In this document: one piece after another, positions 5,902 to 37,659 of the stretch
How the letters are laid out: each line of letters starts with the position of its first letter
Numbering within the stretch: the stretch's first letter is position 1
Source: a virus
Reading direction: 5' to 3' (one strand)
Virus record (IMG/VR): IMGVR_UViG_3300042922_000381
Span: 1-38,182 of that record
DNA length: 38,182 nucleotides
Translations under genes and position numbers: made by a program
The notes under the pieces: model-generated
Told to the model about the DNA's origin: nothing
What the model saw: only the letters and a program-made list of their open reading frames with translations
Database searches by the model: none

Positions 5902-6702
5902 ATGGGAGGGGCATTCCAAACAAGTCGGGATATATTCACTAATCCCATTTGGCAAGACATACCGAAATTCCGAATTTTCTTTTTCATTGTAGGTAATGCA
6001 GTTTTTTCTCAAGAAGGAGTCAGAATTGCTAACCTACATATCAAACGAGGTCAATTCCTCCGTTCCTATCGAAATTTAAGTGATGACCTTTCGTATATTG
6101 AGAATCGAAAAGTGAAGAAATATTCCGTTTCGGTCATATCGAGAAAAATTGAACAGTTAGTCCAAGAAAATAGACTAAAAGTCCAAGAGTCCGAACTTGG
6201 AACACTGTTCACAGTGGTAAATTATGAGTTATACCAAGGGTTTGACCACTATAAGAAAAAAGAACTTGGAACAGAGTTGGAACACTGTTGGAACAGTGAT
6301 GGAACAGAGTTGGAACAGAGTTGGAACAATAATAATAAAGATAATAAGGTTAAGAAAGAAAAAAAGGATAAAGAAAAGATATCTATACCCTTCTTGGAAA
6401 TTGTTTCTTACCTTAACGAAAAGACCAATTCCAAGTTCAAACCTACTTCAAAGAAAACTCAAGAGTTAATAAAAGCACGATGGAATGAAAGTTTTACCTT
6501 AGAAGATTTTAAAAGCGTGATCGACAAGAAAACTACAGAATGGCTCAATGACACGAAAATGAGCCAATACCTTAGACCAGAAACTTTATTCGGCACTAAG
6601 TTTGAATCTTACCTTAACCAAAAGGGAGGGAAAATAGTTGAAAAGTCTCAACGAGATTATGAAGGATACGACTTCGACAGAGAACGAGAACCAGCCTTTT
6701 AG
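5902..6702 (+). CDS. Replication initiator (O-like; TIGR02220-type C-terminus)
   Basis: 266 residues, ATG start. The N-terminal 110 residues form a winged-helix domain (FTNPIWQDIPKFRIFFFIVG, then VSVISRKIEQLVQENRLKV). Residues about 165-240 (FLEIVSYLNEKTNSKFK ... MSQYLRPETLFGTKFESYL) match the conserved C-terminal domain of phage replication proteins (Phg_2220_C) that recruits the loader or helicase. In between is a low-complexity linker with two 11-residue repeats (GTELEHCWNSD / GTELEQSWNNN), encoded by 11-bp DNA repeats that probably form the origin. This is analogous to lambda O, whose gene contains ori. The helicase loader gene overlaps its 3' end. Expected role: bind the iterons, melt the adjacent A/T-rich DNA and recruit host DnaB-type helicase through the loader. 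Confidence 0.8.
   Translation: MGGAFQTSRDIFTNPIWQDIPKFRIFFFIVGNAVFSQEGVRIANLHIKRGQFLRSYRNLSDDLSYIENRKVKKYSVSVISRKIEQLVQENRLKVQESELGTLFTVVNYELYQGFDHYKKKELGTELEHCWNSDGTELEQSWNNNNKDNKVKKEKKDKEKISIPFLEIVSYLNEKTNSKFKPTSKKTQELIKARWNESFTLEDFKSVIDKKTTEWLNDTKMSQYLRPETLFGTKFESYLNQKGGKIVEKSQRDYEGYDFDREREPAF
6266..6400. other. Candidate replication origin: six 11-bp iterons plus A/T-rich DNA
   Basis: TTGGAACA (one copy ATGGAACA) begins at 6266, 6277, 6288, 6299, 6310 and 6321, exactly 11 bases apart six times. A seventh, off-phase copy starts at 6197. Directly after the array comes a stretch of almost pure A/T with AATAATAATAA (from 6327) and purine-rich A tracts to about 6390, fitting an unwinding element. 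The array lies within the initiator gene. Confidence 0.75.
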
Positions 6703-7498
6703 AATGCCTAGAACGATTGGTCAAGTTAAATGCCCTGTGTGTGGAGAAGATAGCAATATTACGGAATATTGGCTTAAAGGAGAACGCCGAATAATTAATT
6801 ATGTTGAAAGTGCAGGCAAATGCTTTAGTTGCAATAGCCATGATGAAGCGCTAAAAGAATTTGAACGGCAAAGAGAAGAACATCGTTTAGCTAGAATCGA
6901 GAGAATAAAAGAAATATTCAATACAGACTCACTTATGAACCCTAAATTGCAAATTGCTACTTTCGAAAACTATCACCCTACTAGCGAAGAATTAAATAAA
7001 TCAAAAGAAATCACTAAACGATATGCGGAAAACTTTTCGAAAGAAAATCCTATTAGCCTTTTAATGATAGGAAACTACGGAACCGGGAAAAGCCATTTAA
7101 GTGTAGCTATTACTAAAGTTTTGATGGAAAAAAGTTTAAGCTGCATCTTCATTTCAACACCAAAACTCATGACAAAAATTCGCTCCACCTACAACAAGCA
7201 AAGTGAATACAGTGAAGAACAAATAATTGACCAACTGAGCAAAGTTGATTGTTTGGTACTGGATGACATAGGTTCTGAGTCTGTGAAACAAGGAGATTCA
7301 AATCAACACACATGGGCCACTAGTAAACTATTCGAAATTATAGACAACCGTATTGGGAAACATACCATCTTTACTACTAATTATGATGTAAACGAATTAC
7401 AAAAACGGTTAGGTGGTCGAAATTTCTCAAGGATGATGGAAAATGTCCATGTTATCAAAATGTATGGCGATGATTATAGATTAAAAGATTTTAAGTGA
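6638..7498 (+). CDS. DnaC/DnaI-type helicase loader ATPase
   Basis: 286 residues, TTG start with AAGGGAGGG upstream. Residues 32-65 hold a zinc-binding N-terminal module (C32-x2-C35 and C62-x2-C65). The AAA+ core has Walker A GNYGTGKSH (145-153), Walker B LVLDDIG (206-212) and a sensor-1 region IFTTNYD. A C-terminal R-rich helix NFSRMME carries candidate arginine-finger residues. This matches phage DnaC-like loaders, which place the host replicative helicase on the origin. The gene overlaps the initiator by 65 bases. No phage helicase or polymerase gene is present, so host enzymes must be recruited. Confidence 0.9.
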   Translation: MKSLNEIMKDTTSTENENQPFRMPRTIGQVKCPVCGEDSNITEYWLKGERRIINYVESAGKCFSCNSHDEALKEFERQREEHRLARIERIKEIFNTDSLMNPKLQIATFENYHPTSEELNKSKEITKRYAENFSKENPISLLMIGNYGTGKSHLSVAITKVLMEKSLSCIFISTPKLMTKIRSTYNKQSEYSEEQIIDQLSKVDCLVLDDIGSESVKQGDSNQHTWATSKLFEIIDNRIGKHTIFTTNYDVNELQKRLGGRNFSRMMENVHVIKMYGDDYRLKDFK

Positions 7499-22585: not shown

Positions 22586-24427
22586 ATGCCATATACAAGT
22601 AATCAAGGAACACAAATTATTCAAACGGATAACAAAGAAATCAAGGAACAACTGGCTGATGTTACGACGTCTTTGGCAGAAAAAGCGAGTAAAGACGAAG
22701 TACGTTTAAAGTCCGTAAAAAACGAATTAGAAGATATGTCGCCAACTGTTTTAGCAGCTATTGAAGGTGGTGAAGGTACAAGTTTTAATTTGTTATCTAT
22801 ACCACAAAACGGTAGTGTTGGGGATGAAAAAACTACTTTTATTACCATAGGTGAAAACATATTTGATGCCAGTAAAACAACAGATAATAAATACATTGAT
22901 AATACTGGTAATGAAAATTCTTCTGCAACTCTATGTTATTCGGATTACATTCCTGTTAATCCTGGTGATGTTTTAACCATATCAAGAGCTCTTACTTCTC
23001 CAGGTGCAACATACGACCAAAATAAAAATAGAATAGGTGTACCATATACAGTTGGAGCTGCCACGTCACCGTATACTTTTACCGTTCCTGATGAGGTTTA
23101 TTCTTTACGACTTAATCTATACATGGAAGGCGGTAATAGCAAATCGGTTTTTATGGTTGTAAAAGGAAGTAGTTTACCAGGTGCCTACGTACCATATAAA
23201 AAATTTATACCAAAGTTAGTAGTTACAAATGATAATTTAGAAAACGATTCCGTAAGTACGGATAAAATTACCCATGAATCAGTTACAACTGAAAAAATTG
23301 CACCTGAATCCGTTACCGCCGAAAAAATAAAAGGTAGTAAATTTGATAATATGTTTGATAAAACTACGGTAACAGCAGATAAATATGTTGATAATACTGG
23401 CGTAATAAACGATAGTGCATTGTTATGTTTAAGTGATTACATTCCGGTTACAGAATTCGAATCATTTACTGTTACAAAAGGGTATACTTCTCAAGGTGGA
23501 TATTACGACGTAAATGAAAATTGGATTGCAAAAATTGACGGTGCCGAAAGTGGTGTAATAGACGGGCTAACTTTCACAGTTCCATCAAACCGTGCTTATG
23601 TAAGACTTAATATACAAAATAACCATGTTGATGAATGGATGATGGTTCCTGGTGATACATTACCGGAAACTTATTCCTCGTTTGGTTGGAGTGTTGATGG
23701 GTTAAAAGGAAAAAAAGAACTAGTTACTTATAGTGATTTAGACGCTAATTTAAAGGGTGAAATAGATTCAATCGGAGTATTCTCTTCTAAATGGGCAGGC
23801 AAAAAAATCGTAACGTTTGGAACATCAATCTCTTGGTATGATGGACAACAATATAACGCTAATACAACCGAACCGGGAGTAACTGTTAAAGGTTATCAAA
23901 GCTTTATCCGAGAAAAGTTAGGAGTCATAGTAGACAATCAAGGGGTAAGTGGAAATACGACACCTCAGATTAATACACGAATACAAGTTTACGATTTTAC
24001 CGGCGTGGATGCCGTAATAATGGAAGCGGGTACAAATGACTTTAGGGATATGTCAACCGAACAAATAGGGACTATAGAACCGATTGGGAGCGCATTTGAT
24101 AACACTACCTTTATTGGTGCTTATCAAGAAGCAATAGAACATATTTTAGGTGAAAATCCTGAGATTAAAATTTTCCTATTTGCACCAATAAAGGGTTGGA
24201 AAGATGGCATAGGAATAATGCCAGAAACATATCCTCAAGCGGTTATGGATATAGGAAAGTTATATTCTTTGTCAGTGTGCAACCTTTATTATGATAGTGG
24301 AATCAATGACTTAACGAAGTCAGTTTATATTGTTGATACTGATGCAGTCTCATTTGATTTTCACCCCAGTACAAAGGGGTATGAACGAATGGCAAATATT
24401 ATCTTACCATTCTTGGAAAATCATTAA
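22586..24427 (+). CDS. Tail spike/fibre with two repeat domains and SGNH hydrolase
   Basis: 613 residues, ATG. Residues 1-70: helical, with KEIKEQLADVTTSLAEKASK. Residues about 95-210 and 250-370 are two copies of one beta domain (FDASKTTDNKYIDNTGNENS and FDKTTVTADKYVDNTGVIND open them), joined by a repeated linker (SVTTEKIAPESVTAEKIKG) like fibre beta-helix repeats. Residues 400-613 are an SGNH/GDSL esterase: GTS with Ser414, GVSGN (about 455), GTND with Asn484, and D591-x-H593 in FDFHPS. It probably deacetylates cell-wall or capsule sugars during adsorption. Position before the neck genes is unusual for a receptor-binding protein. Confidence 0.85.
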   Translation: MPYTSNQGTQIIQTDNKEIKEQLADVTTSLAEKASKDEVRLKSVKNELEDMSPTVLAAIEGGEGTSFNLLSIPQNGSVGDEKTTFITIGENIFDASKTTDNKYIDNTGNENSSATLCYSDYIPVNPGDVLTISRALTSPGATYDQNKNRIGVPYTVGAATSPYTFTVPDEVYSLRLNLYMEGGNSKSVFMVVKGSSLPGAYVPYKKFIPKLVVTNDNLENDSVSTDKITHESVTTEKIAPESVTAEKIKGSKFDNMFDKTTVTADKYVDNTGVINDSALLCLSDYIPVTEFESFTVTKGYTSQGGYYDVNENWIAKIDGAESGVIDGLTFTVPSNRAYVRLNIQNNHVDEWMMVPGDTLPETYSSFGWSVDGLKGKKELVTYSDLDANLKGEIDSIGVFSSKWAGKKIVTFGTSISWYDGQQYNANTTEPGVTVKGYQSFIREKLGVIVDNQGVSGNTTPQINTRIQVYDFTGVDAVIMEAGTNDFRDMSTEQIGTIEPIGSAFDNTTFIGAYQEAIEHILGENPEIKIFLFAPIKGWKDGIGIMPETYPQAVMDIGKLYSLSVCNLYYDSGINDLTKSVYIVDTDAVSFDFHPSTKGYERMANIILPFLENH

Positions 24428-36168: not shown

Positions 36169-36440
36169 GCCCACAAAAGAGATTAGATAGCGAAAGACAA
36201 ACCCTTTCCCCATTCCCCACAAGCTACCCACGAACTCCCCACAAAAGTTTAAAAAACTTCTATTTGTTTCTGTTTTCGAAATATCCAAAATGCTGATTTA
36301 ATAGGGTTTTTTAATCGTTTCTGTCCGTTTCTTTTTATCAAAATAATGTGAGTTCGATTCTCGCCGAGGGCATCAAAAACCAGTTATATCAAGGCTCTAC
36401 AGCTTTATCAAGTACCTCCTGCCCACGAACTCCCCACAAA
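36169..36440. other. Candidate attP: tRNA-like core with flanking arm repeats
   Basis: 36348-36372 matches a tRNA 3' half: GTGAG-TTCGATT-CTCGC is a T arm (36348-36364), then CGAGGGC plus A (acceptor and discriminator), then TCA rather than CCA. Repeats ending in CCCACAA flank it: GCCCACAAAA (36169), CCCCACAA (36215), CCCCACAA (36237), and CCCCACAA (36432). The 19-base CCCACGAACTCCCCACAAA occurs at 36227 and 36422, in the same orientation. This is a core with P and P' arm sites, right beside the integrase gene. Confidence 0.75.
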
Positions 36441-37591
36441 CTCATAAATTCGTTGATTTTTTCCATGTTTCTCTGCTCAGAAATATTGGACTTGTGGCCG
36501 TAGGTATTTAAGAGAATGGACTTGTCTTTATCACCTAATCTTCCTCCGATAAAGTTAATATCGGAAACACCTGATTCCCACATGATTGTTTCGTGTGTAT
36601 GACGGAACATATGTGGGGTATAATGGCGAAGGTTAAACCGATTGCAAAGTTTGTTGAGCCAGTCCCCATAATTGGAGGTTTTGACAAAACTTCCTGTTTG
36701 GGTTATAAAAAAGGTAGGAACATTTTCAGATTTTAGTCCGTGGCGCAGAATGATGGCGTTGCGGATTTTTTTATATTCTTTTAATTTCGCTAACGTGAAA
36801 TCATCTAGCCCAATAATTCGTTCCCCTGATTCTCCTGTCTTAGTCGTAGGCTTCACCTTCCAAACTAAATCCTCTTTGATGTACGTTTTATCTATGTTTA
36901 ATAGTTTCTCATTGAAATCCACGTCTTTTTCACTGACCGCACAAATTTCTCCGATTCTAGCACCTGTTCCAATCAAAGCATAGGTGATGTATTTATATTG
37001 ATAGAATTCATCGGTTGTATAAGATTCAATCGCTTTGATTAATTCCAGGCATTCATCTAGTTCAATATTCTTCTTTTTGTTCTTCACAGGTTTGCAGGTA
37101 CGAGGATATTTTGTTTTTTTGACTGGATTCTTTCGAATAATATCCGGGACAGCTTCCTCAAAGGCTTCGCTCAAACGGCTGTTATGGCGCTGTAAGGTGC
37201 TTTTCGTGTAGCTGGGGGCAATGGTATTGATAAAGCCCTGATACTTCTCCTTGTCCAAGTCCTTCATTTTCACATATCCTAGATGCTCGGTGCAAATTGT
37301 TATCGCTTGATTAATCGTTTTTTCCGTTCCCCAAGAAACGGTATTTTTTTTAAATGTATCAAACCAATATTGCAGATAGTCCTTCACAAACATTTCCTCT
37401 TTAGCAATGTCGATGCCAAGTCCTAGTTTCCGTTCCATTTCATCGGCTGCCTTCTTGCATTCTTTCGGTGATTTAAAATCTCCCTTTGACTTCTCTTTCC
37501 ATTTATTTGTTTTAGGGTCTTTGTATCGAATCCGATACTCATAAAAGTCGAGTTTGGAGTCCTTTTTTTGATATTTTTTAATACTTGCCAT
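36389..37591 (-). CDS. int: Tyrosine-type site-specific integrase
   Basis: 400 residues from ATG 37591, with AAAGGTGTG upstream on the minus strand; a longer start at 37633 is less likely. N-terminal AP2-like arm-binding domain (YEYRIRYKDPKTNKWKEKSK), SAM-like core-binding domain (62-160), catalytic domain from 175. Catalytic residues: R212 (GTGARIGEI), Lys in KPTTKTGESG, H327 and R330 (PHMFRHTHE), nucleophile Y364 (LNTYGHKS). The usual second His (LGH) is D354 here (RLGDKDK). It would recombine the tRNA-like attP immediately downstream with a host tRNA gene. Confidence 0.9.
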   Translation of the reverse strand: MASIKKYQKKDSKLDFYEYRIRYKDPKTNKWKEKSKGDFKSPKECKKAADEMERKLGLGIDIAKEEMFVKDYLQYWFDTFKKNTVSWGTEKTINQAITICTEHLGYVKMKDLDKEKYQGFINTIAPSYTKSTLQRHNSRLSEAFEEAVPDIIRKNPVKKTKYPRTCKPVKNKKKNIELDECLELIKAIESYTTDEFYQYKYITYALIGTGARIGEICAVSEKDVDFNEKLLNIDKTYIKEDLVWKVKPTTKTGESGERIIGLDDFTLAKLKEYKKIRNAIILRHGLKSENVPTFFITQTGSFVKTSNYGDWLNKLCNRFNLRHYTPHMFRHTHETIMWESGVSDINFIGGRLGDKDKSILLNTYGHKSNISEQRNMEKINEFMSLWGVRGQEVLDKAVEP

Positions 37592-37659
37592 TTTTTTCAC
37601 ACCTTTGTTGATTTTTATCATAGTATTACCCACATAAAATTCAATTATGGGGGAGTATT

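What the first reader, a model, noticed from the sequence alone, without database searches (positions are those of the whole stretch)
6266..6400. Six 11-bp iterons inside the initiator gene followed by an A/T-rich stretch
TTGGAACA recurs six times with exactly 11-base spacing (one helical turn), followed by A/T-rich DNA. The initiator's own linker is encoded by this array, so protein repeats (11 residues) and DNA repeats are the same object. This mirrors lambda O/ori but with different sequence and shorter period.
Basis: partly seen in the sequence, partly recalled or inferred. Interest (0 to 1): 0.7.

Follow-up and report, generated by a model that had tools for sequence, protein, structure and literature searches.

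The report
Phage replication origin inside initiator gene
A bacterial virus carries its replication start site, a row of six 11-letter DNA repeats followed by an easily melted A/T-rich stretch, inside the gene for the protein predicted to bind it; this is a known arrangement (phage SPP1), and relatives here, including one that moved the repeats to a gene-free spot, show that selection acts on the DNA repeats themselves.

Summary
Six 11-bp units (five TTGGAACA, one ATGGAACA) lie at 6266-6328 inside an initiator gene (5902-6702), followed by 60 bp of 82% A+T, the least stable stretch of the initiator/helicase-loader module. A further TTGGAACA lies at 6197. The initiator is a full-length homologue of SPP1 gp38 (N-terminal winged-helix-like domain plus Phg_2220_C), which is known to bind direct repeats in its own gene (oriL). 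Best explanation: a replication origin. DNA-level selection is shown: 46 of 52 N-domain relatives keep the array; positions predicted only from neighbouring units always use the iteron codon (AAC 32/32, GAA 43/43, GGA 25/25); copy number changes by single units with compensating 1-nt shifts; unit sequence follows the N-domain (r=0.61), not the C-domain (r=0.07). One relative lost the array from its gene but carries it in non-coding DNA 8 kb away, with the same A/T tail. Origin activity itself is inferred. New here: the lone upstream unit is under the strongest codon constraint in the domain, suggesting a two-part origin; recognition-helix residue 81 may co-vary with unit base -1 (suggestive only). 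Verdict: new member of a known kind (SPP1 oriL / lambda ori-in-O).

The parts
5902..6702 (+). Initiator (replisome organizer) gene, 266 aa
   Evidence: PF09524/TIGR02220 C-terminus, PHROG 428 'replication initiation protein', PHROG 2514 'DnaD-like helicase loader'; full-length homologue of SPP1 gp38
5902..6267 (+). N-terminal DNA-binding domain (residues 1-122), winged-helix-like
   Evidence: AlphaFold2 on 52 relatives, mean pLDDT 88.7, with helix 76-88 followed by a beta-hairpin wing 92-105; only weak, generic winged-helix matches in the PDB, best E 0.024
6127..6165 (+). Codes for predicted recognition helix, residues 76-88
   Evidence: residues 78 and 81 are the columns most associated with unit bases -2 and -1; tree-corrected signal suggestive only
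6197..6204 (+). Distal single iteron TTGGAACA, 69 bp upstream of the array
   Evidence: Codons G100 (GGA 47/49, background 41%) and T101 (ACA 42/51) are the two most constrained of 31 conserved residues; spacing 66-69 bp in most relatives and 68 bp in the relocated non-coding copy
6266..6328 (+). Array of six 11-bp iterons, read in all three frames (GT/LEQ/WN)
6329..6388 (+). A/T-rich probable DNA unwinding element
   Evidence: 82% A+T; least stable 50 bp of the module starts at 6328; in the family the 60 bp after the array average 73.5% A+T against 61.4% for the genes, 48 of 53 higher
6400..6618 (+). Phg_2220_C domain (residues 167-239), probable partner-binding domain
   Evidence: PF09524 E=1.7e-32; exchanged for DnaB_2 (PF07261) or unassigned C-termini in relatives
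6638..7498 (+). DnaC/DnaI-like AAA+ helicase loader
   Evidence: PHROG 50 'DnaC-like helicase loader' E=1e-73, IstB/DnaA-type ATPase matches

Best explanation
This is the replication origin of a temperate phage, embedded in the gene of its own initiator, of the SPP1 gp38/oriL kind. The N-terminal winged-helix-like domain binds the 11-bp units side by side on one face of the DNA, with the distal unit at 6197 as a second contact. The protein-DNA complex strains and melts the A/T-rich stretch at 6329-6388. The C-terminal domain then brings in the DnaC-like loader encoded next door, which places the host replicative helicase on the open strands. Shown: the array, the A/T stretch, homology to gp38, and selection on the DNA units. 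Inferred: binding, melting, loader recruitment, origin activity.
For: (1) Array and adjacent A/T-rich stretch exceed chance and codon needs. (2) Homology over both domains to SPP1 gp38 (N-domain profile E=1.4e-8 at Z=100,000; PF09524 E=2e-20), which binds direct repeats in its own gene with nanomolar affinity next to an A/T-rich unwinding element (PMC6316719). (3) Positive control: SPP1 gene 38 and its relatives show an 11-bp array at the same place, and the SPP1-like phage 000TH010 has the same unit three times at 11 bp, plus A/T-rich DNA, in a non-coding gap among its head genes, where SPP1 has its second origin oriR. (4) 46 of 52 N-domain relatives, collected without reference to the array, carry at least 3 phased units in the linker; the strict four-unit pattern occurs in 36 of 50 records, its reversed control in 1. 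(5) Codon choice at positions predicted only by neighbouring units: AAC 32/32, GAA 43/43, GGA 25/25. (6) Unit number 4, 5, 6 or 7 with linker offsets 53, 54, 55, 53 nt. (7) L259/L066: no array in the gene; the same array, A/T tail and upstream unit in non-coding DNA. (8) Unit sequence tracks the N-domain, not the C-domain (partial r 0.61 against -0.06). (9) Staphylococcal phage 80alpha ORF20, which shares the C-domain, cannot be complemented in trans, as expected if ori lies in the gene (PMC5499656).
Against: No binding or replication data exist for this phage. L281 (N-domain 49% identical) has no 11- or 12-bp array in its gene or elsewhere in its record, and L261, L290 and L306 have weak or 12-bp-spaced versions. 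GC skew shows no switch at the site. The rows of the codon and Mantel tests are related to one another, so the p-values are too optimistic. The PDB fold matches are weak.
Confidence: 0.9

Rival explanations
1. The array is mainly an operator: the initiator binds it to regulate its own operon or to act as a road-block to transcription, and replication starts elsewhere.
For: Initiators often autoregulate through iterons (general knowledge); the units look like protein-binding sites under DNA-level selection.
Against: The array lies about 360 bp inside the gene, not at a promoter; it is coupled to the least stable DNA of the module; the homologous sites in SPP1 are origins (PMC6316719); in L066 the array sits about 8 kb from the initiator gene.
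Confidence: 0.06
2. A protein-level repeat: a flexible linker that grew by slippage, with the DNA periodicity as a side effect.
For: The linker peptide is repetitive and the junction is variable.
Against: The iteron codon is always used at predicted positions; no synonymous recoding of the peptide reached the observed periodicity; single-unit copy changes are not multiples of 33 bp; the array occurs in non-coding DNA in L066 and as a second copy in 000TH010.
Confidence: 0.02
3. The array is kept as a recombination junction that lets initiators swap C-terminal domains.
For: At least seven C-terminal clusters join the same N-domain directly after the array; Pony matches only up to residue 139, the end of the array.
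Against: A homology patch does not explain the fixed 11-bp phase, the co-variation of the units with the N-domain, the relocation, or the constraint on the distal unit. Swapping is better seen as a consequence: binding domain and binding site travel together.
Confidence: 0.01
4. A centromere-like partition site for a plasmid-like prophage.
For: Fold matches include TubR, an iteron-binding partition protein; some Bacillus prophages are plasmids (PMC6669507).
Against: The phage has an integrase (36389-37633); none of the window genes searched matched a partition family; the downstream partner is a helicase loader.
Confidence: 0.01

Closest known systems
SPP1 gp38 (G38P) and oriL/oriR (Bacillus subtilis phage SPP1 and its relatives)
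   Same: Homologous over both domains; direct repeats of 11 bp in the middle of the initiator gene followed by A/T-rich DNA; a loader gene follows.
   Different: Unit sequence (AGAAACGACAC against TTGGAACAGAG); SPP1 has a second origin (oriR), the window has no second array; SPP1 brings its own helicase and a gp39-type loader, whereas here the next gene is a DnaC/DnaI-like loader.
Phage lambda O protein and ori in gene O
   Same: Iterons plus A/T-rich stretch within the initiator gene; variable iteron number changes the linker length (4 in lambda, 6 in Stx phages; PMC7466680).
   Different: Described as unrelated to the gp38 type in PMC5499656; the 11-bp period here is shorter than lambda's (lambda's longer units are my own knowledge, not tested).
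Staphylococcal phage 80alpha ORF20 and its embedded origin
   Same: Phg_2220_C C-domain (64% identity over 81 aa), DnaC-like loader next door, origin annotated or inferred inside the gene.
   Different: Unrelated N-domain by profile and a 15/30-bp repeat instead of 11 bp.
Bacillus phage Pony replication protein (gp37)
   Same: N-domain 71-73% identical and a TTGGAAC array of five 11-bp units at the same place.
   Different: Different C-terminal domain.

Membership tests
SPP1 gp38/oriL-type origin (initiator with embedded iterons) | Initiator homologous to gp38 | tested here: met
   N-domain profile E=1.4e-8; PF09524 in both proteins
SPP1 gp38/oriL-type origin (initiator with embedded iterons) | Direct repeats inside the initiator gene | tested here: met
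   Six units at 11 bp; the same period in SPP1 gene 38
SPP1 gp38/oriL-type origin (initiator with embedded iterons) | A/T-rich unwinding element next to the repeats | tested here: met
   Least stable 50 bp of the module starts at 6328; unwinding itself not tested
SPP1 gp38/oriL-type origin (initiator with embedded iterons) | Helicase-loading partner encoded alongside | tested here: met
   DnaC-like loader at 6638-7498; a different loader type from SPP1 gp39
SPP1 gp38/oriL-type origin (initiator with embedded iterons) | Initiator binds the repeats | not testable with these tools
   Only indirect: unit sequence co-varies with the N-domain and, weakly, with recognition-helix residue 81
SPP1 gp38/oriL-type origin (initiator with embedded iterons) | Replication starts there | not testable with these tools
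   GC skew uninformative
SPP1 gp38/oriL-type origin (initiator with embedded iterons) | Second origin (oriR) elsewhere; an SPP1 trait, not a defining one | tested here: not met
   No second phased array in the window
Lambda O / ori-lambda | Initiator homologous to lambda O | not tested
   No lambda O sequence was compared directly; Pfam matched only PF09524
RepA_N / DnaD-type initiators | RepA_N or DnaD N-terminal domain | tested here: not met
   No RepA_N or DnaD Pfam match in the window protein, although PHROG 2514 'DnaD-like helicase loader' matches

The most novel reading that the evidence does not exclude
The origin is bipartite: a single distal iteron, written into the codons of the initiator's own wing and held 66-69 bp (about six turns) before the array, is an essential part. 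The binding domain, its site and the melting element form a unit that moves between C-terminal domains and can be relocated to non-coding DNA. Recognition-helix residue 81 may read unit base -1 (Arg with G, Lys with A).
Probability: 0.35. Interest if true: 0.6.

Novelty: new member of a known kind. Interest (0 to 1): 0.45.

Why it matters
Origins hidden in coding DNA are usually named by eye. Here the DNA-level constraint can be separated from the protein-level one, because the 11-bp unit runs through all three reading frames and because nature has moved the array out of the gene in one phage. That gives a general way to find phage origins in sequence alone, and a family of several dozen matched initiator-iteron pairs in which DNA specificity can be tested by single substitutions. 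It also predicts a second, distal contact site that is not described in the papers I could read.

Tried and rejected
Literal search for TTGGAACA with 'iteron' in papers: nothing relevant. Collection scans for three phased TGGAAC returned many unrelated tandem repeats alongside real initiator arrays, so the unbiased protein-based set was used for the statistics. A first codon count was circular, because units were chosen by GAAC; it was replaced by the neighbour-predicted test. A second origin in the window was sought and not found. A relocated array for L281 was sought and not found. PDB sequence search of the N-domain: no significant match. GC skew: uninformative. Residue 81/base -1: strong by counts (K81 never with G-majority, 0/8; R81 22/30), but only about 5 independent pairs on supported branches, 3.6 concordant and 0 discordant, sign test p about 0.125, so reported as suggestive. 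SPP1 complete genome not held; the relative 000TH010 was used instead. Megablast of the structural region against named phages: no match. Whether the distal-unit spacing is fixed by DNA or by the conserved protein segment cannot be separated in coding copies; only the single relocated copy (68 bp) speaks for DNA.

Full report
Observation. In 6266-6328 there are six units at exact 11-bp spacing, five TTGGAACA and one ATGGAACA (6299); TRF finds the same array. Recoding the peptide synonymously 20,000 times never reaches the observed periodicity. The 60 bp that follow are 82% A+T, and the least stable 50 bp of the initiator and loader genes begin at 6328, the last base of the array. A seventh TTGGAACA lies at 6197.

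Gene and surroundings. The array sits in a 266-aa gene (5902-6702). Its C-terminus is Phg_2220_C (PF09524) and its best PHROG is a replication initiation protein. The next gene is a DnaC-like helicase loader. The N-terminal 122 residues are predicted with good confidence (pLDDT 88.7) to have a helix (76-88) followed by a beta-hairpin wing, as in winged-helix domains; PDB fold matches are generic and weak. The record is a 38,182-base virus contig with terminase, portal, capsid, endolysin and integrase genes.

Membership. SPP1 gp38 matches the N-domain profile (E=1.4e-8) and PF09524 (E=2e-20), so the window protein is a full-length homologue. SPP1 gp38 binds direct repeats within its own gene (oriL) and at oriR, both next to A/T-rich unwinding elements (PMC6316719). 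SPP1 gene 38 has an 11-bp array at the same place. In the SPP1-like phage 000TH010 the same unit recurs three times at 11 bp in a non-coding gap between head genes, followed by A/T-rich DNA, which is where SPP1 carries oriR. This serves as a positive control for reading 11-bp arrays as binding sites of this initiator type.

Is the DNA repeat itself under selection? A protein-based search that did not use the repeat gave 79 loci. Of 52 aligned N-domains, 46 have at least three phased units in the linker, and a strict four-unit pattern occurs in 36 of 50 records against 1 for the reversed control. At positions predicted only from units 11 bp before and after, Asn is always AAC (32/32, background 37%), Glu always GAA (43/43, 67%) and Gly always GGA (25/25, 43%). 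Unit number is 4, 5, 6 or 7, and the distance from the conserved NY motif to the first unit is 53, 54, 55 or 53 nt: one unit more is offset by one nucleotide, so single DNA units, not 33-bp protein repeats, are gained and lost. The rows are related, so the p-values overstate the evidence, but the effects are complete or nearly so.

Which part of the protein goes with the array? Unit similarity follows N-domain similarity (r=0.61, p<0.001) and not C-domain similarity (r=0.07; partial -0.06). The same N-domain is joined to at least seven C-terminal clusters, among them Phg_2220_C and DnaB_2. Conversely, other Phg_2220_C phages with unrelated N-domains, such as 80alpha, have other repeats (15, 22-24 bp).

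A natural relocation. In L259/L066 (64% identical N-domain) the linker has no array. The record's only array, four units followed by AATAATAATAAGG, lies in a non-coding gap between a repressor-like and an IrrE-like gene near the integrase, about 8 kb from the initiator gene. No ORF above 25 aa covers it. It keeps an upstream unit 68 bp before the array, against 69 bp in the window.

The distal unit. Among 31 conserved residues, G100 and T101, the codons of the lone TTGGAACA at 6197, have by far the strongest codon constraint (GGA 47/49; ACA 42/51), while other conserved glycines vary freely. L281, which has no array, has GGCACG there. The spacing to the array is 66-69 bp in most relatives, but in coding copies a conserved protein segment may fix it. 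A role in the origin is inferred.

Specificity. Residues 78 and 81 of the predicted recognition helix are the columns most associated with unit bases -2 and -1. Lys81 proteins never have G-majority units at -1 (0 of 8), Arg81 proteins do in 22 of 30. On the tree only about five independent contrasts exist, 3.6 concordant and none discordant, so this is a lead, not a result.

Counter-evidence and limits. L281 has no array that I could find; L261, L290 and L306 are weak or use 12-bp spacing. No experiment on this phage exists; binding, melting, loader recruitment and origin activity are inferred from homology and from the trans-complementation result for 80alpha ORF20 (PMC5499656). GC skew does not help.

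Verdict. An origin of the SPP1 oriL kind inside its initiator gene: a known arrangement, new member. The added value is the separation of DNA-level from protein-level constraint, the relocated copy, the distal unit, and a set of matched initiator-iteron pairs for specificity tests.

Noticed in passing
L066:12610-12725 (- strand): Array of a related initiator relocated to non-coding DNA, with two upstream units at 57 and 68 bp and the same A/T-rich tail.
   Followed up: yes
L538:5259-5296 (Bacillus phage 000TH010): Non-coding 11-bp array AGAAACGACAC x3 plus A/T-rich DNA, matching the array in its gp38-type gene: probable oriR.
   Followed up: partly
L022, L032, L037, L220: Initiator-like genes without detectable N-domain homology (L022, L032, L220) or Pfam match (L022, L037) also carry TGGAACC arrays at 11 bp in their middle: convergent or very distant relatives.
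   Followed up: partly
L458, L475, L480, L497, L501 and similar; L044, L470, L486, L508: Recurring three-unit GGAACA arrays with fixed upstream units at 63 and 55-56 bp, not in an initiator of this family; nature unknown.
   Followed up: no
L263, L265, L269, L274, L275: The first unit stays TTGGAACAG (TTGGAACAC in L265) while the following units have changed (GGGG, ACGC types): the unit nearest the N-domain may be special.
   Followed up: no
window 36214-36245 and 36422-36443: 11-bp repeats (TCCCCACAAAC / CCCACAAACTC) beside and inside the 3' end of the integrase gene; possibly integrase arm-type sites.
   Followed up: no
L281 (record G030): N-domain relative whose gene lacks the array and whose distal unit reads GGCACG; no 11/12-bp array anywhere in its record.
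   Followed up: partly
window 23264-23328: 30-bp imperfect tandem repeat inside a tail-fibre-like gene (22586-24427).
   Followed up: no
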